Assembly (NCBI RefSeq): GCF_019297835.1
Contig: NZ_CP079203.1
Location: forward strand, 1,275,001-1,339,000
Direction of reading: 5' to 3'
Length of the DNA: 64,000 bases
Origin: Sphingomonas sanguinis
Lineage (GTDB): Bacteria; Pseudomonadota; Alphaproteobacteria; Sphingomonadales; Sphingomonadaceae
In this document: positions 42,428 to 57,073 of the stretch, one piece after another
Numbering within the stretch: position 1 is the first letter of the stretch
Layout: the number at the start of each line of letters is the position of its first letter
Made by a program: the position numbers and the translations under genes
Notes under the pieces: generated by a model
Seen by the model: only the letters and a program-made list of their open reading frames with translations
Databases searched by the model: none
What the model was told of the DNA's origin: nothing

Positions 42428-42471
42428 CGCCAGGGACGGTAGCCACCGCCCCCCGCCGCCCGCGCCGTCCC

Positions 42472-42500
42472 GCTTGTGTAGAACGCTGTTCTACACAAGC
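42472..42500. promoter_or_regulatory. 29-bp palindrome, copy 1, between divergent late operons
   Basis: The arm GCTTGTGTAGAAC (42472-42484) is perfectly repeated in inverse at 42488-42500 with 3 nt between. It lies in the 159-bp gap between the leftward terminase/portal genes and the rightward scaffold/capsid genes. Nearly the same element occurs at 51432-51460 and 57004-57032. In P2, late promoters carry a dyad TGT-N12-ACA bound by Ogr; here the inner dyad is TGT-N13-ACA. Confidence 0.7.
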
Positions 42501-42586
42501 ACCGCGTTGCGCCCAAGCGGCCCTTAGCCCCTGTTCTGGCCTGCAAATCGGCCCGTCCAGGGCGCCAATCAGGGATCGCTACAGCG

Positions 42587-43423
42587 ATGGGCACCAAGAG
42601 CAAATTTTTCCGCGCCTTCGTCGAAGGCAACACGATCAGCGACGGCCGCACCATCACCGCCGCCATGATCGATGAGATCGTCGCCACCTTCAACCGCGAC
42701 ACCTACAGCCCACGCATCAATGTCGAGCATATCGCGGGCTACAGCCCCGAGCCGCCCTTCAACGGCTATGGCGACGTCTATGCGGTGAAGGCACAGGACG
42801 ATGACATCACGGTCGCGGGCAAGACCGAAAAGCGCCGCGCTCTCTATGTCCAGGTCGACGCCAATGACCAGCTGCTCAATCTCGCCGCGACCGACCAGAA
42901 GCCCTATCCCTCGGTCGAGCTGACCCCGTCCTATGCGGGCTGTGGCAAGACGGGCATCGTCGGGCTGGCCTTCACCGACAATCCCGCCTCGATCGCGACC
43001 CAGCGCCTGCAATTTTCGCGCTCGGCGCCGGGCACCTTCCACGCGCACGGCGCCGAGGCGGTCGCCCTGGAATTCGACGCCGCGCCGATCGACGTCACCA
43101 AGCCCGACGGCGCCATCGCCAATTTCTTCAATACGCTGGCGTCGAAATTCGGCCGCCCCGTAGAGGAAAAGCCCAAGGAAGAGCCGAAGCCGAAGCCCCA
43201 GCCCGCGAACGACAATGCCTTCGACGCGGGCAATTTCGCCACCGAGGTCGGCAAGACCGTCGCCCAGTCGATCGCCGCAGCCATGAAGCCGGTCACCGAC
43301 GCCCATGCCAAGCTGGCCGAGGATTTCTCGGCACTCCAGGCGAAGCTGGAAAAGGCCCCGGTCGACACCTTCAGCCGCCCGCCCGCCACCGGAGGCAGCA
43401 CCGCCGTCCTCACCGACTGCTGA
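42587..43423 (+). CDS. Capsid scaffolding/maturation protease (P2 gpO-like)
   Basis: gpO-type proteins combine an N-terminal serine protease with a C-terminal scaffold and are cleaved during head maturation. The 278-residue product (P2: 284) begins KSKFFRAFVEGNTISDGRTI, has INVEHIAGYSPEPPFNGYGDV and YPSVELTPSYAGCGKTGIVGLAF, then a Pro/Lys/Glu linker (EEKPKEEPKPKPQP) and a C-terminal helical scaffold region. It is the first gene of the rightward head operon. Confidence 0.93.
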   Translation: MGTKSKFFRAFVEGNTISDGRTITAAMIDEIVATFNRDTYSPRINVEHIAGYSPEPPFNGYGDVYAVKAQDDDITVAGKTEKRRALYVQVDANDQLLNLAATDQKPYPSVELTPSYAGCGKTGIVGLAFTDNPASIATQRLQFSRSAPGTFHAHGAEAVALEFDAAPIDVTKPDGAIANFFNTLASKFGRPVEEKPKEEPKPKPQPANDNAFDAGNFATEVGKTVAQSIAAAMKPVTDAHAKLAEDFSALQAKLEKAPVDTFSRPPATGGSTAVLTDC

Positions 43424-43469
43424 TCGGCCCCGCCCGCCCCCGCCCGCAAGCACAGGACCGCCCCCTACC

Positions 43470-44567
43470 ATGAAGAATAATACCCGCACCGCCTTCAATG
43501 CGATGCTCGGCCAGATCGCCACCATCAATGGCGTCGAGTCCGATGTCGTGCGCGGCGAAAAGCAATTCTCGGTCGCTCCCGCCGTCGAGCAGAAGCTGGA
43601 GGAGGTGATCCAGCAGTCGAGCGAATTCCTCGGCAAGATCAATATCATCCCCGTGGATGCGCAGGAAGGTGCGAAGGTCGGCATGGGCGTCACCCGCCCG
43701 ATCGCCAGCCGCACCCTGACCAATGCCGCCACCGGCGTGCGCCGCAAGCCCATCGACCCCACCGACACCAGCGACCGGGGTCGCTACTTCTGCGCCCAGA
43801 CCAACTCGGACACGGCGATCAAGTACGGCAAGTTGGACATGTGGGCGCACAAGCCCGAGTTCCAGACCCTCTATCGCAACACGATCGTCGCCCAGCAGGG
43901 CCGCGACCGCATCATGATCGGCTGGAACGGCGTCGCCCGCGCCGACACCACCGACATCGTCGCCTTCCCGCTGCTTCAGGACGTCAATTTCGGCTGGCTC
44001 TACAAGATCCGCTATTACGCGCCTGCGCGCCACATGGCGGGCGGTGCCCTGACCCCGGCCACCCGCGATGCCACGACCGGCCGCGTCACGGTCGCGGGCA
44101 AAATCTACGTCGCCCAGGGCACGCCCGGCACCGATGTCGATTTCGTCAATATCGACGCGCTGGTCACCGACGCGATCGAGGTCATGGATGAATGGCATCG
44201 CGACGATACCGACCTGGTCGTGATCGTCGGTCGCGATCTGGTGTCCGACCGCTTCCTCAATGTCATCAATGCGGCGGGCGACAAGGCGACCGAGATGGAG
44301 GCGCGCAATCGCATCCTGACGCTGCCGAAGCAGGTCGGCGGCAAGACGGCCGTGCTCGTGCCCTTCTTCCCCGCCAATGCCATCCTCGTGACGAAGCTCG
44401 ATAATCTGTCGATCTATGTCCAGAACGGTTCCCGCCGACGCACCATCCGCGAAGAGCCGGAATACGACCAGGTCGCCGACTATCAGTCGGTCAACGAGTC
44501 CTATGTCGTCGAGGATTACGGCTGCGCCGTCCTCATCGAGAATATTCAGCAGAGCAAGAAGGCCTAA
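43470..44567 (+). CDS. Major capsid protein (P2 gpN-like)
   Basis: The 365-residue product (P2 gpN: 357) forms the capsid shell. It starts MKNNTRTAFNAMLGQIATING and includes EFLGKINIIPVDAQEGAKVGMG, KPEFQTLYRNTIVAQQGRDRIMIGWNG and IRYYAPARHM, all typical of the HK97-fold capsid proteins of P2-like phages. An N-terminal cleavage by the upstream protease is expected. The ATG at 43470 follows an AGGA site. Confidence 0.95.
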   Translation: MKNNTRTAFNAMLGQIATINGVESDVVRGEKQFSVAPAVEQKLEEVIQQSSEFLGKINIIPVDAQEGAKVGMGVTRPIASRTLTNAATGVRRKPIDPTDTSDRGRYFCAQTNSDTAIKYGKLDMWAHKPEFQTLYRNTIVAQQGRDRIMIGWNGVARADTTDIVAFPLLQDVNFGWLYKIRYYAPARHMAGGALTPATRDATTGRVTVAGKIYVAQGTPGTDVDFVNIDALVTDAIEVMDEWHRDDTDLVVIVGRDLVSDRFLNVINAAGDKATEMEARNRILTLPKQVGGKTAVLVPFFPANAILVTKLDNLSIYVQNGSRRRTIREEPEYDQVADYQSVNESYVVEDYGCAVLIENIQQSKKA

Positions 44568-44613
44568 GCGGCCGCTCGCTGTCACCCTGTAGCCCGTCAC
44601 CCAGGACACGCAA

Positions 44614-45576
44614 ATGAGCCTCGCTCGTCAGACCCGCGACCATGTGTTGTCGCTTATCGCTGCCGCCAGTGCGTCCGCTCCTGCTGGTGGCGGGCTCACC
44701 CCCGCCCTGCACCGCGAAGAACAGCCCCTCTACACCCCGGCCATCGAAATTGCAGCCAAGCAGATCAGCTTGCGCCTGACCCACGACCTGCGCCGCCTGA
44801 AGGACATCAAGTCCCGCCCGCTGAAGATCGCCGCCAAGCGCGAGATGATCCCCGAATATCGCGCCTGGATCGATGGCGAGCTGGCCGCCGGGGAAGCCGT
44901 CGAGCGCGGCCAGATCGCGGCCTCGCCCGCGATCGAGGTCCTGCCGACCGTCATGGTCTGGGCGATCGACACCGACAATTGGCCGCTGGTCCTGCGCCTG
45001 GCCGCCCATGTCCTGCGCCACGACGTACCCCTTCCCGCCCGCTACGAGCGCGACGCCGCCACCCTCATCCTGGAGGAAGTCGCCGAGGCGGCGCTGCGCG
45101 CCCAGAATGCGGGCCAGAGCTTCCCGCTCGACGTGCTGCAAGAGGTCGAGGCTCTGGTCGACGGCATCGACATGCACGACCAGCCGCGCGCCAAGATGCT
45201 GAAGGCGATCGGCACCGAGCTGATCCGCGCCAGCGAGATCCACGCCGAGGGCACCGCCGATCGCGCCCAGGCCGCCGCCCAGGCGATCGAGCCGCTGCGC
45301 CAGGCCTTCGCGCTCGACCCGCGCATCGGCGTCAAGACCGTCATCCAACGGCTGGAAAAGGTCATCGCCAAGACCGCGCCTGACGCGCTCCAGACCGATC
45401 TGGATCGCATCCGCATCGAAGCGCTTGCCCTGGGCGTATCGGACGCGGACTTCGCGATCTGGCTCCAGACGGTCGACGCCGCGACCGATAGCCGCCCGAT
45501 CGACCTGATCGCCGACGGCAAGGCCGACAGCGTGATCGATGCCCTCAAGGCCGCTGCCCAGGGCGGCAATTCCTGA
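44614..45576 (+). CDS. Terminase endonuclease subunit (P2 gpM-like)
   Basis: gpM cuts the cos site together with the large subunit. The product is 320 residues, longer than P2 gpM (247); the N-terminal 100 residues match the family best (TPALHREEQPLY, LTHDLRRLKDIKS, EYRAWIDGELAAG, DTDNWPLVLRLAAHVL). The C-terminal 100 residues are an Ala-rich helical extension. It follows the capsid gene by 46 nt. Confidence 0.9.
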   Translation: MSLARQTRDHVLSLIAAASASAPAGGGLTPALHREEQPLYTPAIEIAAKQISLRLTHDLRRLKDIKSRPLKIAAKREMIPEYRAWIDGELAAGEAVERGQIAASPAIEVLPTVMVWAIDTDNWPLVLRLAAHVLRHDVPLPARYERDAATLILEEVAEAALRAQNAGQSFPLDVLQEVEALVDGIDMHDQPRAKMLKAIGTELIRASEIHAEGTADRAQAAAQAIEPLRQAFALDPRIGVKTVIQRLEKVIAKTAPDALQTDLDRIRIEALALGVSDADFAIWLQTVDAATDSRPIDLIADGKADSVIDALKAAAQGGNS

Positions 45577-45598
45577 TCCTCGAAAGAACGGACTGACA

Positions 45599-45985
45599 AT
45601 GCGCCTCTCCAAGCTCGCCCTGATCTGCGCCGCCTCCCTCGCCGCCCTGCCACTCGCCGCCTGCGGCCCGACCGCCCAGGAGCGATGCACGGGCGCGAAG
45701 GACGCCGTGACCTGCATGGCCGTCGCCAGCTCGGGCGGCGACGTGAAGGACTATCTGGTCGGCGGCCTGGCGGGTGCCGCGCTGGCATCGCAGCTTTCCG
45801 GCGGATCGGCTCGCCCGACCGTGATCCACCATCACGCGCCCGCCACCTACTATCCCCGCACCGCCTATCAAGCGCCGATCCACACCCGGACGGTCACGAC
45901 CACCACCCGCCGAGGTCTTTTCGGCGGTGGCTCGGTCACGCGCACCACCACCAGCTATCGATCGAGCTTCCGCTCGCGTCGCTGA
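45599..45985 (+). CDS. Phage-encoded lipoprotein (cargo gene)
   Basis: A 128-residue protein with a signal peptide and lipobox (ALPLAAC, Cys22). The mature part has a Gly-zipper-like segment (GGLAGAALASQLSGG), then a His/Tyr-rich stretch and a Thr/Arg/Ser-rich C-terminus. It lies between the terminase endonuclease and head completion genes, where P2 has nothing, and is followed by a GC palindrome (45995-46010). Phage lipoproteins are often superinfection-exclusion or envelope-altering factors; that role is a guess. No family recognised. Confidence 0.75.
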   Translation: MRLSKLALICAASLAALPLAACGPTAQERCTGAKDAVTCMAVASSGGDVKDYLVGGLAGAALASQLSGGSARPTVIHHHAPATYYPRTAYQAPIHTRTVTTTTRRGLFGGGSVTRTTTSYRSSFRSRR

Positions 45986-46097
45986 CCAGCTCGCCCCCCG
46001 GCGCCGGGGGCGGATCGCGCGTGGCGGGAGGGGTCTTCGGACCTGAGGGCCGCCACGGACCCGATCCCCACCCCTGGATCTCCTGAAGGACCCGCCC

Positions 46098-46331
46098 ATG
46101 CCCAGCCTCCTGATCCTCATCGCCGCGATCTGCCAGGGGCTCGGAGCATGGGCGGCACTGGCCGGTGCGCTGGCGCTGGCCTGTCAATTCGACCCCGCCA
46201 CCATCGGCCTGCCCGCCATCCACCGCACCCACGCACGCTGCGCGCTCTGGGCGCTGGTCTTCGCGATCGGCATCGCCCTGACGATCGTGGGCGCGGGGCT
46301 CGCCGCCCAGGTCATCGGCGCACCGGCATGA
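46098..46331 (+). CDS. Small two-helix membrane protein in the head operon
   Basis: A 77-residue protein with two hydrophobic segments (about residues 4-30 and 48-73) and a short polar loop with several His and Arg (HRTHARC). Its stop overlaps the head completion gene start (ATGA). With two membrane helices it could be a holin or antiholin, but a better holin candidate lies at 47032. It and the lipoprotein gene form an insertion relative to the P2 order. Confidence 0.68.
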   Translation: MPSLLILIAAICQGLGAWAALAGALALACQFDPATIGLPAIHRTHARCALWALVFAIGIALTIVGAGLAAQVIGAPA

Positions 46332-46819
46332 GCGCGACCTTCATCCCTACCGTACTGCCCGGCGATCCCGCGCCCGTGGTCACCCCGCCCGCGCCGATCG
46401 TCACGGGCGGGTGGTTCCCGCCCATCGACCCCGCGCTTTTCCGCGATGAGCAGCGCGTCGACGCCAATGCGATCACTGACGCCCGCGTCCGCCAGGCGCT
46501 GATCTCGGCGATCATCCGGGTGGGTCGCGACTTGGAGGATTGGCGGCTGACCCAAGTGACGGCGGGCTTCGCCACACTCGATCAGGTGCCAGCGCTGCGG
46601 ATCGATGACCAGTCCGAACTGGCGATCCTATACCGCCGCGCCGTCTTCACCGCCGCCAAGGCTGAGATCGTCGAGCGCTTCGTCGACGTGGACCTAACCG
46701 GGCGTGGCGAGCGTGAGGCCAGCCAGCTCGATCCCACCGTCGCCGAGCTGAGGCGCGACTCGGTCCATGCCGTGCGCGAAATCCTCGGCGTCGGGCGCAT
46801 GACCGTGGACCTGATCTGA
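46328..46819 (+). CDS. Head completion/stabilisation protein (P2 gpL-like)
   Basis: gpL-type proteins stabilise filled heads and join head to tail. The 163-residue product (P2 gpL: 169) has GGWFPPIDPALFRDEQRVDANAITDARVRQALISAI and a C-terminal helical half with YRRAVFTAAKAEIVERFVDVDLTGRGE, both typical. The ATG at 46328 overlaps the previous stop, and its own stop overlaps the tail X start (TGATG). Confidence 0.92.
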   Translation: MSATFIPTVLPGDPAPVVTPPAPIVTGGWFPPIDPALFRDEQRVDANAITDARVRQALISAIIRVGRDLEDWRLTQVTAGFATLDQVPALRIDDQSELAILYRRAVFTAAKAEIVERFVDVDLTGRGEREASQLDPTVAELRRDSVHAVREILGVGRMTVDLI

Positions 46820-47028
46820 TGGACCAGCTGCGCGCCCGCGCCGGTGACACGCTCGACGCGCTGATCTGGCGCGCACGCGGCCTCGGCCCCGACGATCTGC
46901 CCGCCGTGCTTGCCCTCAATCCCGGCCTCGCCGCGCTCGGGCCCGTGCTGCCGATCGGCACCCCCGTGACCCTTCCCGACGCCCCGCCCGCCACACGGCA
47001 GCGCGATGTCGTCCAGCTTTGGACCTGA
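46819..47028 (+). CDS. Tail protein X (P2 gpX-like)
   Basis: A 69-residue protein with a LysM-like core: RAGDTLDALIWRARGLGPDDLPAVLALNPGLAALGPVLPIGTPVTLP. gpX is an essential tail protein in P2. The start shares the A of the preceding TGA. Confidence 0.9.
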   Translation: MDQLRARAGDTLDALIWRARGLGPDDLPAVLALNPGLAALGPVLPIGTPVTLPDAPPATRQRDVVQLWT

Positions 47029-47031
47029 CCT

Positions 47032-47373
47032 ATGCAGAAAATCATCCACGATGTCGGCGACGCGCTGCTCGCCTTTCTCATCACCCTGGTCCCCGGTGCG
47101 GCGGGCGCGGCGGTCAGCTTGGTCTATGAGCAGGGCCTGAGCTGGTCGAAACGCGTGACCCAGATGATGGTCGGTATCACCGTCAGCTATTTCGCGCGCA
47201 ATCTCGCCCATAGCCTGACCGGCTGGGACGATTACCTGCTCCAGGCGGTGGGCTTCGTCGTCGGCATGACCGCGTTCAAGGCCACCCCGGCGCTGATCGC
47301 CGGACTGGTGGAGCGCACGCCACTCGTCCTCACGCTGGTCGACCGCGTCCTGGGCAAAAAGGAAGCGAAATGA
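47032..47373 (+). CDS. Putative holin
   Basis: A 113-residue protein with hydrophobic segments at about residues 10-33, 43-58 and 69-92 and a charged C-terminus (RVLGKKEAK). It takes the place of P2 gene Y (holin) directly before the lysozyme gene, with which it overlaps by 4 nt. Holins form the membrane lesions that release the endolysin at lysis time. The assignment is by position and topology. Confidence 0.75.
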   Translation: MQKIIHDVGDALLAFLITLVPGAAGAAVSLVYEQGLSWSKRVTQMMVGITVSYFARNLAHSLTGWDDYLLQAVGFVVGMTAFKATPALIAGLVERTPLVLTLVDRVLGKKEAK

Positions 47374-47888
47374 CTTACGACCGCGCCCGCCTGGCGCGCG
47401 AGATCGCGCGTGACGAAGGCGACAAGCTGACCGTCTACCGCTGCACCCAAGGCTTCCGTACGATCGGCAAGGGCCGCAACCTCGACACGGTCGGGATCTC
47501 GCCCGCTGAGACGGCCGCGCTGGGCCTCACCGTGGCGAGCTGCCTCGCACGCGGTATCACCCAGGCCCAGAGCGATGCCCTTTTTGGCAATGACATCGCC
47601 CGCACGGAAGCGGATCTCGATCGCCACATGCCCTGGTGGCGCCAGCTGGATCCCGTTCGCCAGCGGGTGATGCTCAATATGTGCTTCAATCTGGGCATTG
47701 GCTATCCGCCGACCCGGACCCGCAAAGGGGTAGGCCTGCGCGCCTTCGTCAATACCTTGCCCGCGATCGAACGTGGCGATTGGCCGCGCGCGGTCGCCGG
47801 GATGCGCGCATCGCTCTGGCACCGCCAGGTCGGTGACCGCGCCGAGCGGCTGGAGGCGATGATGCTGACCGGAAAGGACCCCCGATGA
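47370..47888 (+). CDS. Endolysin: T4-type lysozyme (GH24) with Glu-Cys-Thr triad
   Basis: The 172-residue product cleaves peptidoglycan at lysis. The T4-lysozyme core reads ARDEGDKLTVYRCTQGFRTIGKGRNLD. The triad spacing Glu-8-X-5-Thr is kept (E16, residue 25, T31), but residue 25 is Cys where T4 has Asp20. A Cys at this position is known to support activity. The C-terminal lobe includes NMCFNLGI and SLWHRQVGDRAERLEAMML. There is no signal sequence, so release depends on the holin. Confidence 0.93.
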   Translation: MTYDRARLAREIARDEGDKLTVYRCTQGFRTIGKGRNLDTVGISPAETAALGLTVASCLARGITQAQSDALFGNDIARTEADLDRHMPWWRQLDPVRQRVMLNMCFNLGIGYPPTRTRKGVGLRAFVNTLPAIERGDWPRAVAGMRASLWHRQVGDRAERLEAMMLTGKDPR

Positions 47889-48358
47889 TCTGGATTCGGA
47901 AACTCTGGGGTGGCCTGCGCACCGAGCTGCCGTTCATCATCCTGCTGATCGTCGGCGCGGTCGGCGCCTGGCTCTACGTCCAGGCCCGCCATGCCGAACG
48001 GGATCGTGACGATGTCACCCGCCGCGCCGAACTGGTCTGCGCCAAGATCGGGGTCGACTGGCGCGAAAAGCACCCGCGCGGCCCCGGCACCGCCTGTGCC
48101 GATCGCGCCGCCCAGCTGCGCGCCGATCGCGAAGCGACCGATCGGGAGACGGCACGCCTGCTGTCCGCCGCCATGGCGCGCGGCAATGCCCTGTCCGCAT
48201 CCGATGCCCAGGCAGCCCGCACCGCCCTTGCCCGTGCCCAGGCCGCCGAGCGGAAAATGGAGAATGCCAATGCCCAAGCTGATGCGACCGACCATGTCCG
48301 CGCTGACTGGATCGCTGCTCTTAACGGCCTTGCCGGGCTGCGCCACGCGCCGCGCTGA
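47885..48358 (+). CDS. Inner-membrane spanin (Rz-like)
   Basis: A 157-residue protein with an N-terminal membrane anchor (about residues 15-35) followed by a long charged, Ala-rich coiled coil (DREATDRETARLLSAAMAR and onward). It overlaps the lysozyme gene by 4 nt. Spanins bridge inner and outer membranes and disrupt the outer membrane in the last step of lysis. The partner lipoprotein starts inside its 3' end. Confidence 0.83.
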   Translation: MIWIRKLWGGLRTELPFIILLIVGAVGAWLYVQARHAERDRDDVTRRAELVCAKIGVDWREKHPRGPGTACADRAAQLRADREATDRETARLLSAAMARGNALSASDAQAARTALARAQAAERKMENANAQADATDHVRADWIAALNGLAGLRHAPR

Positions 48359-48596
48359 TCTGACCCCACCCGCGCCGGTGGCGGTCGCGGTCGAGCCGCC
48401 GCGCCCGCCCGCCGAGCTGCTCGCCTGCGCCGATCGCGCACCCGCCCTCCCCGAGGATCCAGCGCTGATGGCGAAGATCCCCGCCGCCTGGCGCAAGGGC
48501 CTGATCGGCCTGGCGCGGGCCGCTGGCGTCAACGCCGATCGCCTCGACCGCCTGACCAATTGGATCGCGCCGGGCAGCTGCCCGGCACAGGAGTGA
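48270..48596 (+). CDS. Outer-membrane spanin lipoprotein (Rz1-like), nested start
   Basis: A 108-residue lipoprotein beginning 89 nt inside the Rz-like gene in another frame. The signal peptide MSALTGSLLLTALPGC ends in a lipobox (ALPGC), followed by a Pro-rich stretch (TPPAPVAVAVEPPRPPAEL), the hallmark of Rz1. The C-terminal 50 residues are an extension beyond the usual Rz1 length. A GGAG site lies 7 nt before the ATG at 48270. Confidence 0.85.
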   Translation: MPKLMRPTMSALTGSLLLTALPGCATRRADLTPPAPVAVAVEPPRPPAELLACADRAPALPEDPALMAKIPAAWRKGLIGLARAAGVNADRLDRLTNWIAPGSCPAQE

Positions 48597-48598
48597 CC

Positions 48599-48934
48599 AT
48601 GACCGCATCTACCATCATGCAGCGCCGCGCGATCTATGAGCGTACCGCCGACCGCTCCGGCGAGGCTTTCCAGCTGGTCAATGCCAATGTCTCCGCCGGA
48701 CAAGTGAAGGTCGCGGGCGGGGATTACGTATTCGCACAGACTGGCGCGACCTATGGGACGGTGACGCTTCAGGTGCTCGGTCCCGATGGGAATACATGGC
48801 TGACCCTGGTGACGAAAAGCGCGTCCGACGCCGGGTCGGGGACTGGCGTCACGCTTGCCGCCAATGCGGTGCTCCGCGTGACCGTCGCGGGCACGATCGG
48901 CTGCTATGCCAGCCTGTCGCGGGTGCCCGCCTGA
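48599..48934 (+). CDS. Phage protein of unknown function, beta-rich
   Basis: A 111-residue protein with alternating beta-type segments (GQVKVAGGDYVFAQTGATYGTVTLQVLGPDGNTW, LAANAVLRVTVAGTIGCYA). Its stop overlaps the start of the SGNH esterase gene (TGATG). By position and content it is probably a small virion or tail-decoration protein made with the esterase. No family recognised. Confidence 0.75.
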   Translation: MTASTIMQRRAIYERTADRSGEAFQLVNANVSAGQVKVAGGDYVFAQTGATYGTVTLQVLGPDGNTWLTLVTKSASDAGSGTGVTLAANAVLRVTVAGTIGCYASLSRVPA

Positions 48935-50286
48935 TGGTCCGCTTTCTCGGCACCCAGGCGGTCGGCGGTGGTCAGGTTCCCGGCTTCGTCCCGCCCCCGA
49001 TCCCGACTTTCCCGGCCGCTGTCCTGGCGAGGGCGCAACGGATCATTTCTACTGCGGGCACTATCACTCCAATCGATCAGGTGGCAGCCATCCCGATCAC
49101 CGTGACGCCGGGGGCGTCGGCTGGAAATTCGCTGCTTGATCCAAGCATAACCTTCGGCTCTGACGGAAAGTACAACGTCCAGGACGCGACACGCTTCGAG
49201 CAGATCGCTGGGTTGCTGGCTATCTCCAGCGGCAACACGCGCACCGGTCAGGGGCGTATCAGCAACGTCACGACCGGGACGCGCGGCTCGACCTTCGGGA
49301 ATGGCGTCCGCTTCCGCTATGCCGGGAAGAGGTTCGAGTTTTTCAGCAGCGGTTCGGGGAAGGCCATCGTGTACCTGACCAACCCGGCTACCGGCGTCCG
49401 GGAGCGCGGTCGCTCGCTCGATTTCACGACGGGCACGAACGTCTTCGTCATGGTCGACCTCGGCAGTTATGCTGACCGCATTATTGAGGTGGCTCAGTCC
49501 GGGTCTAATGTCTGGCGTGGGTTCGTACCGGAAAGTGGGTATGATTTCACCCTTCCGCCTGCACGACCCAGCAAGCCCTCCATCGTCCTGATCGGTGACA
49601 GCTGGTATGCCGGAACGCTCTCCGCTCCCTCTGGCCAGTCTATTGCGGACACCGGCGTCAAGATCGGCGTAGGTTCGATGCTTGGTGCCTATCTGGGTGA
49701 CGAAAACGCCTGGATTTCCTCGACCGGCGGTACGGGACACCTTTTCGGATCGCCCGCCTTTCGAGGAACAAGTGGAGCCACGGCGGGCGGCTACCGCGAC
49801 CGTGTTAACCCCACCGTCGCGGCGGTCGGTGATATCGACGTGTCGCTTGTCGGCGCGCGCGATGCGATCATCATCCGCAACAGCCTCAACGACAACGAGC
49901 AGTCGGGCAATACCAACAAGCCGACCGATGCCGAAGAGCGCGAGGAAACTCGCCTCGCAACGCAGGCGGCCATGGCAAAGCAGCCAAACGCATTGATCAT
50001 CGGGATGGGGCCGCAGCGTGCCTACAACGGCACGACGGGGACCAATCCGACCCAGGCGCGATATGATGCCTGTCGCGACGGCTTCCTGGCGGCGATCGGA
50101 AGCGACCCCCGTTGCGTCTGGGTCGATATCAGCCCTGCGGGCTACGCTGTCTACGCTGATACGGCTGCGAACGCACAGTATATTGGCCAGGATGGCGTCC
50201 ACCCCACGGACGCGGGGATGCGCTTCTATGCACAACGGGAGGCCAATGCGATAATCGGCACCCTGAAAGCGAAGTACGGCCTGTGA
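48934..50286 (+). CDS. Tail-associated SGNH/GDSL hydrolase (putative deacetylase)
   Basis: A 450-residue protein. The N-terminal 210 residues look like a beta-rich receptor or structural region; the C-terminal half is an SGNH hydrolase with the nucleophile Ser223 in IVLIGDSWYAG, an Asn block in IIIRNSLNDNEQ and the catalytic DGVHPTDAG (D420, H423). Such enzymes remove acetyl groups from polysaccharides. It lies between the lysis genes and tail completion genes. It may deacetylate the host capsule or LPS during adsorption; that role is inferred. Confidence 0.85.
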   Translation: MVRFLGTQAVGGGQVPGFVPPPIPTFPAAVLARAQRIISTAGTITPIDQVAAIPITVTPGASAGNSLLDPSITFGSDGKYNVQDATRFEQIAGLLAISSGNTRTGQGRISNVTTGTRGSTFGNGVRFRYAGKRFEFFSSGSGKAIVYLTNPATGVRERGRSLDFTTGTNVFVMVDLGSYADRIIEVAQSGSNVWRGFVPESGYDFTLPPARPSKPSIVLIGDSWYAGTLSAPSGQSIADTGVKIGVGSMLGAYLGDENAWISSTGGTGHLFGSPAFRGTSGATAGGYRDRVNPTVAAVGDIDVSLVGARDAIIIRNSLNDNEQSGNTNKPTDAEEREETRLATQAAMAKQPNALIIGMGPQRAYNGTTGTNPTQARYDACRDGFLAAIGSDPRCVWVDISPAGYAVYADTAANAQYIGQDGVHPTDAGMRFYAQREANAIIGTLKAKYGL

Positions 50287-50768
50287 AGAAGGTCGACGCC
50301 CTCCGCGCGCTGCTGGTCCGCTCCGTCCCCGCACTGACGGCCGATCCGTCCAAGCTGGCGATCTTCGTCGATCGCGGACGGGTCGGCGCGCGGCTGGGCA
50401 ATCTCTCTTTCGAATATCGCTACAGCGTCAATCTGGTGCTCCTGGATTATGCGGGCGACCAGGATGCGGTGATCGTGCCGATCATCGCCTGGATCGCCGA
50501 GCATCAGCCTGAACTGCTCCAGCGCCAGGACAGCGAGCCCTTCGGCTTCGAAAGCGAATGGCTCGCCCAGGACAAGCAGGACCTGTCGATCACGATCGAC
50601 CTGACCGAGCGGGTGGCGGTCCAGCGGGTGGCAGGCGGCGTCACCATCGAACACCTTGCAGACACCCTGCCCCCCGACATCTTCCCCGGCGCCGAGGATG
50701 CCCGGCTCTGGCAGGGCCTTGCCGAGGATCTGGCCGCAGGCGAGACGGCGATCGTCGCAGCCCGATGA
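50283..50768 (+). CDS. Tail completion protein (P2 gpR-like)
   Basis: A 161-residue protein (P2 gpR: 155) with KVDALRALLVRSVPALTADPSKLAIFVDRGRV and FEYRYSVNLVLLDYAGDQDAVIVPIIAWI, then ITIDLTERVAV. gpR and gpS are needed to finish tails so heads can join. The GTG start overlaps the esterase stop (GTGA), and the 3' end overlaps gpS by 4 nt. Confidence 0.92.
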   Translation: MKKVDALRALLVRSVPALTADPSKLAIFVDRGRVGARLGNLSFEYRYSVNLVLLDYAGDQDAVIVPIIAWIAEHQPELLQRQDSEPFGFESEWLAQDKQDLSITIDLTERVAVQRVAGGVTIEHLADTLPPDIFPGAEDARLWQGLAEDLAAGETAIVAAR

Positions 50769-51430
50769 GCGAGGATTTCGCCCCCATCGAGCAACTGGCG
50801 GGCAATCTGCTGCAAAGCCTGTCGGCGCCGGAGCGCCGGTCCCTGCTCCGCAAGTTGGCCCGCGCGTTACGCGCCACCCAGTCGGAGCGGATCGGTCGGC
50901 AGCACAATCCCGACGGATCGGCCTATGTCGCCCGCCGTCCCCGCCGCGAGCTAAAGCCGGGCAATTTTGCGGTGAAATTCCTGTACCCCAAGGGCGATGC
51001 CAATGCCCGCCTGGTCTTCATGAAATCATGGGTGCGCCAAGGACCGCTCCTGACCGGCTTCGACGCTGAGGCGGGCGCGATCCGCTCCTTTTTCTGGGAC
51101 AAGGTCGACCGCTTCCTGCCCGTCGAGCCCGAGGATCAGAATAAGGCGGCGGGAAAGCTTCGCCGTCGCGGCAATATCCGCCGCCAGGCGATGTTCCGCA
51201 AACTGCGCTCCGGCCGCTTCCTGCGCTCCGGTGCCACGGACAGCGAGGCCTGGATCGGCTTCACCGGCCGCGCCTCCATGATTGCGTCTATCCACCAGGA
51301 CGGCAAGATGGATGCGCCGAAGCTGGGCGGTCGCCAGATCCGCTATGCCCAGCGCGGGCTGCTCGGCCTGACCGAGCGGGAACGCGGGCTGGCGATCGAC
51401 ATGCTGCTCGATCACGTCGCCAGCCGCTAA
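50765..51430 (+). CDS. Tail completion/virion morphogenesis protein (P2 gpS-like)
   Basis: A 221-residue protein. It starts with LAGNLLQSLSAPERRSLLRKLARALRATQSERIGRQHNPDG, the common start of this family, and has RSGATDSEAWIGFTGRASMIASIHQDG and RQIRYAQRGLLGLTERE near the end. It is longer than P2 gpS (150) by an internal insertion around residues 75-150. It is the last gene before the second 29-bp palindrome. Confidence 0.9.
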   Translation: MSEDFAPIEQLAGNLLQSLSAPERRSLLRKLARALRATQSERIGRQHNPDGSAYVARRPRRELKPGNFAVKFLYPKGDANARLVFMKSWVRQGPLLTGFDAEAGAIRSFFWDKVDRFLPVEPEDQNKAAGKLRRRGNIRRQAMFRKLRSGRFLRSGATDSEAWIGFTGRASMIASIHQDGKMDAPKLGGRQIRYAQRGLLGLTERERGLAIDMLLDHVASR

Positions 51431-51431
51431 A

Positions 51432-51460
51432 GCTTGTGTAGAAGGCCATTCTACACAAGC
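51432..51460. promoter_or_regulatory. 29-bp palindrome, copy 2, upstream of the baseplate J gene
   Basis: GCTTGTGTAGAA (51432-51443) and TTCTACACAAGC (51449-51460) are perfect 12-bp arms with a 5-nt centre. The element lies in the 73-bp gap between the gpS-like and gpJ-like genes. Confidence 0.7.
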
Positions 51461-51503
51461 ACACGCTGGCCACCCTATCGCACCCCGATCGACATGGGCG
51501 GCG

Positions 51504-52400
51504 ATGGCCGCCAATCCCTCCACCACCGTCGATCTGTCGCGTCTCGATCGCCCGACCATCGTGGCGCCGGTCGATTATGAGGCGACGCTGGCTCGCATGA
51601 TCGCACGGGTGAAGGCGATCCTGCCCAGCTTCGACGCGACGGTCGACAGCGACCCTGCGGTGAAGGTCCTTCAGGTCGCCGCCTATGTTCAGATCCTGGA
51701 TCAGCAGGATTTCAACGAGCGCCTGGTATCGCGCCTGGTCGCCTATGCGACGGGCGCGACGCTCGACCATATCGGCGCCGCGATCGGCGTCGCCCGTCTG
51801 ACCCTGACCCCGGCCAATCCCGCCAACGGCATCCCCGCCGTCATGGAGGATGACGAGAGCTTTCGCGCCCGCATCGTCCTGGGCCCCGAAAAATTCGCGG
51901 CGGCCGGGCCCGAGCTGGCCTATGTCGCTCATGCCAAGGACGCCAGCGCCCAGGTGCTCGACGCCAGCGCCACGTCCCCGGCGCCGGGCGAGGTCCGGAT
52001 CACCGTCCTGTCGCGGCAAGGTGACGGCACCGCCTCGGCGGATCTGCTGGCGGCGGTGCGCGCGATCGTCGCCGATCCCGCCATCCGGCCGCTCGGCGAC
52101 CTGGTCAGCGTCGCCACTGCCACTCTGATCCCCTTCACGGTGACCGCACGGCTCTGGACCTTCGCCGGACCCGATGCCGCCCTGGTCGTGGCCACCGCCC
52201 GCGCCAGCCTCGACGCTTATCTCGCCCGCTCCCGCAAGCTCGGTCGCAATATCACCCTGTCTGGCCTGTGCGCCGCGCTGACCGTCGAAGGGGTCCAGCG
52301 CGTCGTGCTGGACGCGCCGGTTGCCGAGATCGTCTGTGACGCCACCCAGGCGGCCCGCTGTATCGCCATCACCGTCACCCATGCGGGCTATGATGAATAG
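51504..52400 (+). CDS. Baseplate assembly protein (P2 gpJ-like)
   Basis: A 298-residue protein (P2 gpJ: 302) of the baseplate wedge. Its start TTVDLSRLDRPTIVAPVDYEATLARMI matches the usual gpJ opening, followed by DPAVKVLQVAAYVQILDQQDFNERL and the DESFRARIVLGPEKFAAAGPELAYVAHA segment. It is first in the third late unit here, whereas in P2 it follows V and W. Confidence 0.94.
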   Translation: MAANPSTTVDLSRLDRPTIVAPVDYEATLARMIARVKAILPSFDATVDSDPAVKVLQVAAYVQILDQQDFNERLVSRLVAYATGATLDHIGAAIGVARLTLTPANPANGIPAVMEDDESFRARIVLGPEKFAAAGPELAYVAHAKDASAQVLDASATSPAPGEVRITVLSRQGDGTASADLLAAVRAIVADPAIRPLGDLVSVATATLIPFTVTARLWTFAGPDAALVVATARASLDAYLARSRKLGRNITLSGLCAALTVEGVQRVVLDAPVAEIVCDATQAARCIAITVTHAGYDE

Positions 52401-53049
52401 CCTGCTCCCCCCCAATGCCACCCGTCTGGAACGGGCACTGGAGGCGGGCGTGTGTCTGCCTGCCGAAATCGACGCGGCCGCCCTGGCCGATGTGGTCGCC
52501 AACCCGATGACCGCACCGGCTTTTCTGCTCCCCTGGCTGGCCTGGGGCGAGTCGGTGGATACATGGGACGCCGACTGGTCGGAGGCGGACAAGCGCGCCA
52601 CGATCGCCGCGTCGATCGCGCAACACCGGATCAAGGGCACCCGCGCCTCGGTTGAAATGGTGCTCGCCCGTTTCGACCAGCTTGCCCGCCTGGTCGAATG
52701 GCATCAGGCGTCGCCGCACCGCCCCGCCCACACCTTTGACGTGATCGTGCCGATGGTCCTGCCCGATGGCACCGCCCCCGGCGGGCGCCGATCGTCGGCG
52801 GCATTCGCCGATGCGATCATCCGCGAGATCGCGCGGGTCAAGCCGCTGCGCGAACATATGCGCCTGGTCCAGGAAATTGCCGTGGCGGGCGCGATCGGCA
52901 TCACCGGCGTCGCCCGCGCGGTCACTTACACCCGTGCCGATGCCGATGTCGTCATCGACCAGTCGCCCGATTGGGCCGCTTACCTCCAGACCGAGGATGG
53001 CGAGCCCCTCCAGTCGAACGACGGCACCTTTCTGGACACCCGCCTATGA
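52390..53049 (+). CDS. Tail protein I (P2 gpI-like)
   Basis: A 219-residue baseplate protein (P2 gpI: 176). SLLPPNATRLERALE and LPWLAWGESVDTWDADWSEADKRATIAASIAQHRIKGTRASVE are strong family signatures. It overlaps the gpJ gene by 11 nt; a start one codon later is equally possible. It has a longer C-terminus than P2 gpI. Confidence 0.93.
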   Translation: MMNSLLPPNATRLERALEAGVCLPAEIDAAALADVVANPMTAPAFLLPWLAWGESVDTWDADWSEADKRATIAASIAQHRIKGTRASVEMVLARFDQLARLVEWHQASPHRPAHTFDVIVPMVLPDGTAPGGRRSSAAFADAIIREIARVKPLREHMRLVQEIAVAGAIGITGVARAVTYTRADADVVIDQSPDWAAYLQTEDGEPLQSNDGTFLDTRL

Positions 53050-54062
53050 CCGCGCTCAAACTGACCATGACCACCGCCGGGCTGGGCCGCTTCACCGCCG
53101 CACAAGGCGGCGACGATATCGACCTAACCATCGCACGGGTCGGCTTGACCGCCAGCGGCTTCGTCGCCGCGCCCACGCTCACCGCGCTGCCTGGCGAATT
53201 CAAACGGCTCGCGACCGTGTCGGGTTCGGTCGAAGCGCAGAACATCGTCCATATGACGATCACCGACGACGACGCGGCGACCTACACGGTTCGCGGCTTC
53301 GGCCTGTTCCTCGCCGATGGAACGCTGTTCGCCGTCTATGGCCAGTCCACGCCCATCGCCGAGAAGTCGATCGGCGCGATGCTGGCGCTGGCGATCGACA
53401 TCGCCTTCCCGGTCGCGGGCGTGGAAAACATCACCTTCGGATCGACCAACTTCCTCAACCCGCCGGGGTCCGAAGAGCGCAAGGGGGTGGTCGAGCTGGC
53501 GACGCTGGCCGAGGCGAATGCAGGCGATACGACCCGTGTGACCACTGGATCCGTGGTGAAGGCGATGATTGCCGCCGCGATCGATGCCGTATCCCAAGCG
53601 CTGGCCGGAATCACGTCGCGCACCATCTTCGGATCGGGTCTGGTCAAGGGAGGCGGCGATCTGACCGCCAATCGCACCCTGACGGTCGACGCCGCCAGCG
53701 CAGCCGAGGTGTTGGCGGGCACGCGCGGCGATGTGGCGATCACCCCGGCCGGGCTGGCGGCGCTGGCGGCATCCATCGGCACGACGGGCGAATTCCAGCT
53801 TGCCCCCGGCGTCTATTGCAAGATCGGCTATCTGCCGGGGCCACATGGCGAGGGTGCCGTCCCGATCAATTTCGTCACACCCTTCCCCAATGCCTGCCTG
53901 ATTGCGGTGCCGATCGTGCGAAATGCCGCCGGTGACATTCGCTGCGACAGCTATGGGCAAGAGCGCGATCTGACACGGACCACCTTCACCGCATTCATCC
54001 AAAAGCAAGCGGCGGACAGCGTCAGCATCGACGCGATCCGCTGGATCGCCATCGGCTGGTAA
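53046..54062 (+). CDS. Tail fibre protein (P2 gpH-like N-terminus)
   Basis: A 338-residue protein. The N-terminus (MTALKLTMTTAGLGRFTAAQ) and the following TYTVRGFGLFLADGTLFAVYGQ, GSTNFLNPPGSEERKGVVELAT are typical of P2-like fibre baseplate-attachment domains; the C-terminal third, with CLIAVPIVRNAAGDIRCDSYG, is a short beta-rich tip. It is much shorter than P2 gpH (669). The start overlaps the gpI stop by 4 nt. Confidence 0.88.
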   Translation: MTALKLTMTTAGLGRFTAAQGGDDIDLTIARVGLTASGFVAAPTLTALPGEFKRLATVSGSVEAQNIVHMTITDDDAATYTVRGFGLFLADGTLFAVYGQSTPIAEKSIGAMLALAIDIAFPVAGVENITFGSTNFLNPPGSEERKGVVELATLAEANAGDTTRVTTGSVVKAMIAAAIDAVSQALAGITSRTIFGSGLVKGGGDLTANRTLTVDAASAAEVLAGTRGDVAITPAGLAALAASIGTTGEFQLAPGVYCKIGYLPGPHGEGAVPINFVTPFPNACLIAVPIVRNAAGDIRCDSYGQERDLTRTTFTAFIQKQAADSVSIDAIRWIAIGW

Positions 54063-54071
54063 GGACGTATC

Positions 54072-56027
54072 ATGGCCAAGATTTCCGAGCTGCCGACCCT
54101 CGCCAATCCCCTCGGGACCGAGCTGGTGCCCGCGATCGACGCAGGCGGGCGGACCGTCAAGGCACCCATCGGCGGCCTCGTCGATGCCGCCGTCACACCC
54201 GCCGTCGTCAAGGCCGAGGCGGCCGCTATGCAGGCGACGCAGGCCGCCGATCAGATGCTGGGTGCCCGACGCGACGTGGACCCCGGCGACTTTGCGCCGG
54301 GCACGATGGTCGACGCCACAGGTCGGGTGGTCGTGGGCGTGGGGCGCGACGGTCGCGTTCGCATTCCCCTGCTCGACGGACGATCGGGCAAGCGGCCCTT
54401 CGCGATCCCCGCGGAGCTGGACGGCCTGGTCGACGGGGAGGTGGATGAGGCGACCGGCGCGCTGGTCTGGGGCGTTCACGCGACGCGCGGGTTCTTCACG
54501 CCCCAGAGCGACTTTCGCGACTGGCAGGCACGGGGGATGGACAATATCCGCAAAGCCACCAGTTACCGCACGATCGCCGTCGCCCTGACCGCCGGTCAGT
54601 CCAACGGCGCCGATGCGCTCGATTATGGCCAGCTCCATCGCCAGCCCGCACCCTTCGGGGAATATCCCACCGGCTATAACGGTGAATTGGATGCAGCCAC
54701 CGTCACCCGTACCACCGACGCCAGGGTCTTCAGTCAATTCGGCTTCGATCCGTCACAGGATCGGCTGGTTCAGATCGGCTCCCCCGATGGGCAGGCCCAA
54801 TATGGCATCTGGGAGACCTATCAGGGTACGGAGTCGAAGCTGCGCGGCTTCGCGCTGCGGATGCGCCGCCTCTATCCCGACTTGGCATGGGCGCTGAGCC
54901 AGGCCTTTGCCGAGGGCGGACAGCCGCTCAACTTCCTCGACCGGCCCAGCGAGGCCCAAATCCTCGCCGGGGTGATGGAAACGACTTCGGTCCTGGGCAA
55001 CGTCACGATCCCCAAGTCGTCGGCGGAATATCGGATGCTGATCGCCGGACAGCCGCTGTCGGAAATCTGGCGCTATAGCCATTTCGACTGCGCTACCCGC
55101 TTCTACAAGGGCGCGCGGGCGCTTGCCGCCATCTGCAACACCGCCTGGCGGGACATGCGGCTGCTCGCGATCGTCGCCACCGTGATCGTCAGCCATATGG
55201 AGGACGCGACCCAGGAGGCGACCTATCAGGACGCCTATGGGCGCTACCTCGACAATCTTCGCGACGCGGTGAAGGCGATCACCCGCCAGTCGGTCGACCC
55301 CGTCTTCGTCGTCTCGATCCCCGGAGTGTCCGATTACCACGAACAGGCCGGGTGGGCCGCGTGGAAGGCCAGCGGCTTCGCCGCCTCCTATGCCTATGGC
55401 GGCGCGAACAGTGCCTATATCGAGGATGAGTCGCTTCGAAAGAACGACGTCGCCAGCCGCGTCATCAAGGGCACCGACGCCATCGCCCGTCGCCCCTGGG
55501 CCTATATCGGCTATAGCCGGTCGTTCCGGGAAAACAGGATCCATTCCGAGCCTTTCACCATGCGCGAGCAGGGCGAGTACACCGCCGAGCTTGTCGCCGA
55601 TGTCGCCTTCCGCCAGCGCCCCCGTACGCAAGGGTTCCGCGTCGTTCGCCATGAGGTGATCGGCCAGCACTTGGCGCTGCATGTCGAGACGCCGCTCGGC
55701 GAGCCGATCGCGTTCGAGGTGCCGACCAGCACCGGCACCCACATGATCCGCGCCGGGATGCCTTACGGCTTCGAATATTGGGCCCAGGACGGGGCGGGCG
55801 GCTGGACGTTCAAGCCGCTGGCGCAATCGGATGTCACCACGGACGGACGACGCATCCTCATCAAGCTGCCCGCCGGTTGGGCTCCGGGTGATCGCTTCGG
55901 CTACAATATCGGATCGCGCGCGGGATCGGTGGTCACCACCGGTGCGCCCGCCGCCCTGTGGAACTGGCGCGATGGCCAGCCCAATCGACTGCACCACCGA
56001 TTGCTCACCTTCCAGCGCTACCTCTGA
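54072..56027 (+). CDS. Tail fibre with SGNH esterase domain (sialate O-acetylesterase-like)
   Basis: A 651-residue protein. The N-terminus MAKISELPTLANPLGTELVPAIDAGG is a common phage-tail opening domain. From residue 165 there is an SGNH hydrolase of the SASA type, with TAGQSNGADALDY (nucleophile Ser177), QPLSEIWRYSHFD, VIVSHMEDATQE and NRIHSEPFTMREQ (His491), and a C-terminal beta-rich part. Members cleave acetyl esters from sugars. It is the second esterase-like tail protein in the prophage. Confidence 0.85.
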   Translation: MAKISELPTLANPLGTELVPAIDAGGRTVKAPIGGLVDAAVTPAVVKAEAAAMQATQAADQMLGARRDVDPGDFAPGTMVDATGRVVVGVGRDGRVRIPLLDGRSGKRPFAIPAELDGLVDGEVDEATGALVWGVHATRGFFTPQSDFRDWQARGMDNIRKATSYRTIAVALTAGQSNGADALDYGQLHRQPAPFGEYPTGYNGELDAATVTRTTDARVFSQFGFDPSQDRLVQIGSPDGQAQYGIWETYQGTESKLRGFALRMRRLYPDLAWALSQAFAEGGQPLNFLDRPSEAQILAGVMETTSVLGNVTIPKSSAEYRMLIAGQPLSEIWRYSHFDCATRFYKGARALAAICNTAWRDMRLLAIVATVIVSHMEDATQEATYQDAYGRYLDNLRDAVKAITRQSVDPVFVVSIPGVSDYHEQAGWAAWKASGFAASYAYGGANSAYIEDESLRKNDVASRVIKGTDAIARRPWAYIGYSRSFRENRIHSEPFTMREQGEYTAELVADVAFRQRPRTQGFRVVRHEVIGQHLALHVETPLGEPIAFEVPTSTGTHMIRAGMPYGFEYWAQDGAGGWTFKPLAQSDVTTDGRRILIKLPAGWAPGDRFGYNIGSRAGSVVTTGAPAALWNWRDGQPNRLHHRLLTFQRYL

Positions 56028-56041
56028 AGGACGCGATACCT

Positions 56042-56977
56042 ATGACCTTTCTGTCCATCACCTCGACGCCGTCCATGGCCCTGGTGCCCGGTCACCCGAT
56101 GATCGACATGACGCCGATGACCACGGACATCCCCGATGGCATGTGGCACGGCCTGCAATTCTGGCTGGAGCCGTCCAGCTATGCCGGGGTGGCGACGCCC
56201 CCCTATGCGGTGGTGGGGCCGGACGCCGCAGGAAATTTCTCCGGCAGGCTGATCGATCAATCCCGACGCCTGGCATGGCTCGACGCGGCGGGCGTGCGGC
56301 AGGGCATCGCCACCTATTATAACCCCGTGAAGAATCAGCTTTTCATCCCGCAGCTTTCCACTGCATTGGCGGGGATCAATGGTCGACCGGCCCTGCTGAT
56401 CGACCGGACCCAGACCGGGCTATTCGTGCCCCAGGAATTCGGGCTTTGGCCGGATTGGAAACCAGGTCTGGCCCAGCTGCTGACCGACAGCTACACCCTG
56501 GTCGCCATCGCCAGCATGAAGGCGGTCGCGGTGGGCGGCATCTTCAGCACCGGCAGTGCCGATGCGGCCCATACGGATGCGACTTGCGGAATGCGCCTGG
56601 GCTTCAGCGAGCCCGGTCGCCTGCTTTATCAGCATAGCGCGGCGGCATCTGATCGCGTCATCGTCGATTGCCCGGTCGCCGACGATCGGCCGATGCTTTT
56701 CATCGTCACCGCACGTCGCACGCCGGCCGGGACGCATGACGGTCGCATCCGCGTGGTGACGGGCGGGACGGTGATCGACAAAAGCTTCAGCTTTGCGGGC
56801 GCCATCAAATGGGATGGACTGGCGGGGCCGGTGCCCCATTGGGGAAGCCAAGGCCCTGGTGCCGGAAACGCCACCCTTCGCAAGCTGGGGGCGCTGGGCC
56901 GCACGAACCGCTTCATCGGCGACGACGAATTCGAGCGCCTGACGCTGGAGCTGCGCGCGCGGCGCGGGCCCTTCTGA
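56042..56977 (+). CDS. Phage tail-associated protein of unknown function
   Basis: A 311-residue, mostly beta protein with many Trp and aromatic residues (GMWHGLQFWLEPSSYAG, EFGLWPDWKPG, IKWDGLAGPVPHWG). A lectin-like jelly roll is plausible but not shown. Position after two fibre genes suggests a receptor-binding or fibre tip component. It is followed by the third 29-bp palindrome. Confidence 0.8.
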   Translation: MTFLSITSTPSMALVPGHPMIDMTPMTTDIPDGMWHGLQFWLEPSSYAGVATPPYAVVGPDAAGNFSGRLIDQSRRLAWLDAAGVRQGIATYYNPVKNQLFIPQLSTALAGINGRPALLIDRTQTGLFVPQEFGLWPDWKPGLAQLLTDSYTLVAIASMKAVAVGGIFSTGSADAAHTDATCGMRLGFSEPGRLLYQHSAAASDRVIVDCPVADDRPMLFIVTARRTPAGTHDGRIRVVTGGTVIDKSFSFAGAIKWDGLAGPVPHWGSQGPGAGNATLRKLGALGRTNRFIGDDEFERLTLELRARRGPF

Positions 56978-57003
56978 CCCGCATAGTCACCCATTAGCCG
57001 AAA

Positions 57004-57032
57004 GCTTGTGTAGAAGCCCATTCTACACAAGC
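57004..57032. promoter_or_regulatory. 29-bp palindrome, copy 3, upstream of the spike gene V
   Basis: GCTTGTGTAGAA (57004-57015) and TTCTACACAAGC (57021-57032) are perfect 12-bp arms with a 5-nt centre. It differs from copy 2 only in the centre and lies about 40 bp before the spike gene. Confidence 0.7.
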
Positions 57033-57073
57033 GCCCCCTCGTCACGCTTGCGCGAGCGCGCATGGTCGCGGTT

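What the first reader, a model, noticed from the sequence alone, without database searches (positions are those of the whole stretch)
42472..57032. Three near-identical 29-bp palindromes mark the phage late promoters
GCTTGTGTAGAA-N5-TTCTACACAAGC occurs at 42472, 51432 and 57004, each time in a short gap at the start of a late transcription unit (P/Q and O-S, J-fibres, V-D) and nowhere else that I found. P2 late promoters carry TGT-N12-ACA dyads bound by the zinc-finger activator Ogr. Here the dyad is longer and the inner spacing is TGT-N13-ACA, so the activator is probably different, and copy 1 may serve both directions.
Basis: partly seen in the sequence, partly recalled or inferred. Interest (0 to 1): 0.75.

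Follow-up and report, generated by a model that had tools for sequence, protein, structure and literature searches.

The report
P2-type phage late-promoter activator sites
Three identical DNA palindromes in a prophage are most likely the docking sites of the phage's own Ogr-type activator, which switches on its head and tail genes as in phage P2; related prophages carry their own versions of the palindrome.

Summary
In detail: three exact 29-bp palindromes, none elsewhere in the 4.37-Mb genome at up to 3 mismatches. They lie in a P2-type prophage before the P/Q, O, J and V operons. The activator is not of another kind: an Ogr/Delta zinc-finger gene (PF04606, 6e-13) lies in the same prophage, 7 kb past the window end. 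In 38 of 42 related stretches with a visible late-operon start I found a prophage-specific dyad at these places. Dyad sequence tracks Ogr at least as well as any of 14 other phage genes. Aligned on the dyad, -35/-10-like blocks recur at fixed distance and put it near -55, as annotated in P2; the first dyad serves P and O divergently, as in P2. V, J and P start codons lie at predicted +1 to +7 in 34/34, 31/31 and 25/25 promoters without Shine-Dalgarno motifs: probably leaderless or nearly so; O is not. A degenerate fourth dyad follows ogr. Ralstonia P2-like phages have published N13 sites, so this is a variant of a known kind. Binding and transcript starts are inferred.

The parts
42472..42500 (.). 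Dyad copy 1, between P (-) and O (+); predicted shared activator site of both promoters
   Evidence: one shared site annotated in P2
51432..51460 (+). Dyad copy 2, predicted activator site of the J operon; begins just after the stop codon of the upstream gene
57004..57032 (+). Dyad copy 3, predicted activator site of the V-D operon. (Further parts lie past the window end, in L010: ogr at L010:7073-7405, degenerate fourth dyad at L010:8244-8272, gapR-like gene at L010:8330-8590)
42436..42441 (-). Predicted -10 element (TACCGT) of the P promoter; predicted transcript start about 42430
   Evidence: position inferred by alignment on the dyad
40298..42427 (-). P, terminase large subunit; start codon 42427 about 3 nt after the predicted transcript start
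   Evidence: Terminase_6N 1.3e-51, Terminase_5 6.3e-22
42507..42512 (+). -35-like hexamer TTGCGC of the O promoter (TTGAG in most relatives aligned)
42530..42536 (+). -10-like CCTGTTC of the O promoter; predicted transcript start about 42542, about 45-nt leader
42587..43423 (+). O, capsid scaffold
   Evidence: PF05929 2.4e-51
51467..51472 (+). -35-like TGGCCA of the J promoter
51491..51497 (+). Conserved -10-like GACATGG of the J promoter; predicted transcript start about 51502
51504..52400 (+). J, baseplate; start codon 2 nt after the predicted transcript start
   Evidence: PF04865 2.2e-25
57061..57068 (+). -10-like CATGGTCG of the V promoter (the least conserved of the four blocks); predicted transcript start about 57074
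57074..57628 (+). V, baseplate spike; start codon at the predicted transcript start (predicted leaderless)
   Evidence: PF04717 2e-11

Best explanation
The palindromes are binding sites of the prophage's own Ogr/Delta-family zinc-finger activator. One dyad sits about 55 bp upstream of each late transcript start; bound there, Ogr recruits RNA polymerase to promoters with weak -35/-10 elements. The copy between P and O fires both ways. V, J and P messages begin at or a few bases before their start codon; O has a leader. Shown: dyads, Ogr gene, conserved spacing, conserved downstream blocks, start-codon positions, co-variation with Ogr. Inferred: binding, activation and the transcript starts themselves.
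For: Ogr/Delta protein in the prophage. P2-type genes at each dyad. 24 of 35 prophages with at least two late-operon starts had a shared dyad scoring above all 20 random placements of the same windows. Dyads recur with different but symmetrically changed arms, e.g. GCTTTTGTAGAA, GCAATCGTAGAG, CCTGTGGAA, TGTTGTAGGT. Mantel dyad~Ogr r=0.56-0.63 in 13 of 14 comparisons and 0.49 in the n=29 one, p=0.001 in all; still significant given each of 14 other genes. Blocks at fixed distance in a set of 27 representatives (21-24 per promoter). P2's annotated centre-to-start distances are 55-58. Environmental contigs with 82-98% identical proteins keep the P/O and V arms while the central five bases change.
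Against: No expression or binding data. Exact TGT-N12-ACA not met (N13; N14 in five relatives). FII (0.56 against Ogr 0.57) and, in the n=29 subset, HTH (0.48 against 0.49) follow the dyad about as well as Ogr; FII, W, HTH, I, O and V keep some correlation given Ogr (0.18-0.37). 11 of 35 prophages did not beat their controls; 8 of these 11 were later given a dyad by hand-picked seed, G465 only a weak different one, G362 and G448 none. The same kind of search found no convincing long shared dyad in 4 of 4 outgroup phages, so extended dyads are not general to Ogr phages. The P promoter lacks a recognisable -35.
Confidence: 0.9

Rival explanations
1. Late-promoter activator sites, but bound by another prophage regulator (the HTH/Cys-rich protein after ogr, the conserved 164-aa protein before it, or the LuxR-like protein).
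For: The HTH protein's distance correlates with dyad distance as well as Ogr's does in the 29 prophages that have both (0.48 against 0.49; partial 0.31 given Ogr). The 164-aa protein is as widespread as Ogr (50 of 51).
Against: HTH homologue in 36 of 51 stretches, LuxR-like in 8 of 51, Ogr in 50 of 51 (the 51st, G374p, is probably one half of a prophage split over two contigs). The 164-aa protein's correlation vanishes given Ogr (-0.09). Ogr is the established late activator of P2.
Confidence: 0.06
2. Operators of a repressor that silences late genes in the lysogen.
For: Perfect symmetry and short gaps before operons.
Against: The centre lies about 55 bp upstream of the predicted start, outside the -35/-10 region that a simple repressor would cover; weak or absent -35 elements suggest activator dependence; dyads co-vary with Ogr.
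Confidence: 0.03
3. Intrinsic terminators or processing hairpins between operons.
For: Two copies follow a stop codon closely and could form a hairpin.
Against: No run of T after either arm. Copy 1 lies between divergent start codons, where there is nothing to terminate. Conserved blocks follow at fixed distance.
Confidence: 0.01

Closest known systems
Phage P2 late promoters pP/pO, pV, pF and Ogr (record AF063097)
   Same: One site annotated for P and O; site centre 55-58 bp from the annotated transcript starts; annotated V transcript start equals the V start codon; ogr in the same phage; 3 sites for 4 promoters
   Different: P2's annotated sites are only weakly palindromic (by eye); here 12-bp perfect arms, N13; operon grouping is J.. 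| V..D instead of V..G | FI..D; P2's P has a leader of about 23 nt; here ogr is not next to D
Ralstonia phages phiRSY1 and phiRSA1 (PMC5694545, passages seen)
   Different: Different arm sequence; not examined as sequence (the accession I recalled for phiRSA1 was not held)
Stenotrophomonas phage Smp131 (PMC3931495, passages seen; record JQ809663)
   Same: PP', PO', PJ', PV' proposed, with the same J.. | V..D operon split and an Ogr-like protein with CX2CX22CX4C; PP' and PO' given at one place
   Different: No convincing shared dyad found by my scans; the published PP'/PO' coordinates fall inside the annotated P gene of the record

Membership tests
Ogr/Delta activators (PF04606) | Profile match over the curated cut-off | tested here: met
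   48.9 bits against a cut-off of 26.3
Ogr/Delta activators (PF04606) | CX2CX22CX4C zinc motif (as given in PMC3931495) | tested here: met
   CPHC-22 residues-CKNPDC, counted by eye on the translation
P2-type late promoters | Dyad centred about 55 bp upstream of the transcript start | tested here: inconclusive
   Predicted from conserved -35/-10-like blocks; transcript starts not measured
P2-type late promoters | One site shared by divergent P and O | tested here: met
   One dyad, blocks at equal distance on both sides; one site annotated in P2
P2-type late promoters | TGT-N12-ACA consensus | tested here: not met
   N13 here. Exact TGT-N12-ACA also absent from all 3 P2 sites as annotated, so I do not treat it as a usable strict criterion
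P2-type late promoters | Transcription depends on Ogr | not testable with these tools
   Only co-variation available

The most novel reading that the evidence does not exclude
Prophages of this host genus each run on a private late-promoter 'dialect': Ogr and its dyads diversify together, so that co-resident or superinfecting P2-like phages and satellites cannot switch on each other's late genes. The same promoters also fix translation: three late operons (P, J, V) are made from leaderless mRNAs and only O from a led one, and a weakened fourth Ogr site adds a delayed or weaker output (GapR-like or other genes) behind ogr.
Probability: 0.4. Interest if true: 0.6.

Novelty: new variant of a known kind. 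Interest (0 to 1): 0.4.

Why it matters
It supplies 38 natural Ogr/site pairs for reading the DNA code of a small C4 zinc-finger activator that had no sequence relative in the PDB copy searched, and predicts nearly to the base which phage late operons are translated without a leader. It also gives a way to annotate late promoters in P2-like prophages of this group.

Tried and rejected
Rejected: terminator (no T run, copy 1 between divergent starts); repressor operator (position); a different activator class (Ogr present). P2's strict TGT-N12-ACA as a yardstick: none of the 3 annotated P2 sites holds it.

Led nowhere: the shared-dyad search in Burkholderia FLC5 and KL3, Acidovorax Acica and Smp131 gave nothing convincing (judged by eye, no control run); TGTTGT-N13-ACAACA in Smp131 was at chance level (5 matches, 6.19 expected); PDB search for Ogr empty; the paper search for leaderless transcripts in Sphingomonas returned 0 papers.

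Rows dropped and choices made by hand: I fetched 48 of the 61 Ogr hits, the own one included. Dyad half-sites ('seeds') for one search were picked by eye. Of the 42 stretches with a late-operon start 4 have no seed: G532b (V at the contig edge), G465 (a weak, different dyad with the right geometry), G362 and G448 (none found). For some searches I excluded the fourth copies and weak hits by list; two V sites (G451, G567), where the V start lies about 590 bp off, were left out of the start-codon count, as were the P and O sites of G374p. The consensus used 28 of 35 prophages and left out 5 sites by hand. Dyads had been sought near predicted gene starts (200 bp before to 120 bp after for V and J), which does not force the 54-60 position but is not fully independent of it.

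Full report
Observation. The 29-bp palindrome is exact at all three coordinates and confined to them in window and genome at up to 3 mismatches. The first copy lies between P (start 42427, minus) and O (start 42587, plus), the second before J (51504), the third before V (57074). Pfam supports P2-type identities for P, O, J, V and D.

The regulator. The prophage runs past the window. In the next 17 kb (L010) there is a 110-aa Ogr/Delta protein at L010:7073-7405 (PF04606, 48.9 bits against a cut-off of 26.3; phrog_603 'transcriptional regulator'), with CX2CX22CX4C. A phage integrase gene follows at L010:10395-11474.

Relatives. A scan of 396 genomes of the order for the palindrome at up to 3 mismatches found it in 4 of 396 (own included), all in the same genus, with mostly symmetrical arm changes in the other three (the reversed control pattern also matched once in each of 4 genomes, so single weak matches mean little). 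Ogr/Delta was found in 54 of 295 genomes of the genus (52 over the cut-off), 61 hits. I fetched stretches around 48 of the 61 and, with a second contig of one genome (G374) and two environmental contigs, worked on 51 stretches. In 42 of them at least one late-operon start (V, J or P/O) is visible; in 38 of 42 I found a dyad family. In 35 with two or more starts, the best shared dyad beat all 20 random window placements in 24. The families differ: GCTCTTGTAGAA, GCAATCGTAGAG, GGTGTGGCG, CCTGTGGAA, TGTTGTAGGT and others. The spacing is N13-type (odd) in 33 of 38 and N14 in 5 (G473, G479, G607, G615, G621) as seeded.

Who reads the dyad. Over 38 prophages (27-38 by gene), dyad distance correlates with Ogr distance: rank Mantel r 0.56-0.63 in 13 of 14 subsets, 0.49 in the n=29 HTH subset, p=0.001 with 999 permutations. 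Of 14 other genes the best are FII (0.56), W and O (0.50) and HTH (0.48); the gene before ogr gives 0.19. Given each other gene, Ogr keeps a partial r of 0.32-0.56 (p at most 0.002). Given Ogr, FII (0.37), W (0.31), HTH (0.31), I (0.23), O (0.23) and V (0.18) keep some signal (p at most 0.037); the other eight do not. So Ogr is the best single predictor, narrowly over FII and HTH. Shared ancestry is only partly removed by this test.

Geometry. Counting from the innermost base of the promoter-proximal arm as 1, O promoters have TTGAG at 19-23 and a -10-like block at 42-48; J has TRGCC at 19-23 and GACATGG at 43-49; P has a GTGGCTAGG-type block at about 38-46; V has CGC at 20-22 and a weaker block at about 39-45 (27 representatives under 75% Ogr identity, 21-24 per promoter). 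Reading the O blocks as -35 and -10 places the transcript start near 54 and the dyad centre near -55. P2's record gives centre-to-start distances of 56, 55, 55.5 and 58 and one site for pO and pP.

Leaderless prediction. An in-frame start codon lies at 54-60 in 34 of 34 V, 31 of 31 J and 25 of 25 P promoters, but 1 of 25 O promoters. AGGA/GGAG/GAGG precedes 0 of 34, 0 of 31 and 0 of 25 of these, and 18 of 24 O starts. Caveat: by a lenient count such motifs are scarce before some other genes too (W 5 of 40, I 9 of 36, ogr 14 of 50, the gene before ogr 12 of 50, D 20 of 47), though common before N (27 of 28) and FII (35 of 42). In P2 the annotated V transcript start equals the V start codon. That alphaproteobacteria often use leaderless messages is recalled, not checked.

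Fourth site. Of 37 seeded prophages with at least 1.4 kb behind ogr, 16 have a further copy 723-1275 bp behind it. Its promoter-proximal inner six bases match a half-site of the same prophage in 16 of 16, the distal ones in 5 of 16; CTGGC, as in the J promoter's -35-like position, stands at 18-22 in 10 of 16. Two of the 16 (G621, G401) score only 17 of 24; stray hits elsewhere scored mostly 15-19, and one 21. In the home prophage the copy (L010:8244-8272) precedes a GapR-like gene (L010:8330-8590, PF10073). Two environmental contigs keep its arms unchanged while the central five bases differ by one.

Independent conservation. Six viral contigs carry the core pattern. Five are relatives (proteins 82-98% identical) with the palindrome at P/O, J or V; at P/O and V the arms are unchanged and the central five bases differ. 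In the one J copy (L006) the arm next to J and the central five bases are unchanged and the distal arm has 2 changes. The sixth contig (L009) matched none of the nine prophage proteins searched and is probably chance.

Comparison with print. Smp131 (PMC3931495, passages seen) has the same operon split, an Ogr-like protein and PP'/PO' at one place. phiRSY1 (PMC5694545, passages seen) has TGTTGT-(X)13-ACAACA at four late promoter regions. I saw no paper on this host group's late promoters in the listings (searches listed 15 of 18 and 25 of 33), in a library of open-licence papers only. The host genus is unnamed in the tools; that it is a sphingomonad is my guess.

Verdict. P2-type late promoters, very probably Ogr-dependent, with long, prophage-specific dyads: a variant of a known kind. 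The parts worth attention are the natural series of Ogr/dyad pairs, the leaderless prediction and the degenerate fourth site.

Noticed in passing
L010:8244-8590 (window numbering continued: 72244-72590): Degenerate fourth dyad directly before a GapR-like nucleoid-protein gene; gapR-like genes were found in 20 of 51 related stretches, behind ogr.
   Followed up: partly
40298-42427 and 39508-40608: The terminase P frame stays open for about 110 codons past its last Pfam domain and overlaps the portal gene Q by about 300 bp in another frame; in P2 the two genes overlap by 1 base.
   Followed up: no
L010:3192-3713: LuxR/GerE-type regulator gene on the minus strand between D and ogr; a homologue was found in only 8 of 51 related stretches.
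   Followed up: no
L129 (Smp131) 4381-4398: Published PP'/PO' coordinates fall inside the annotated P gene of the deposited record, and no shared dyad was found there.
   Followed up: partly
G396 stretch, 21233: A further copy of this prophage's dyad (19 of 24) 1.3 kb upstream of J may mark an extra late operon there.
   Followed up: no
G373 stretch, P/O versus J and V: Within one prophage the half-site spacing appears to be N14 at P/O and N13 at J and V, suggesting a tolerance of one base (read by eye).
   Followed up: no
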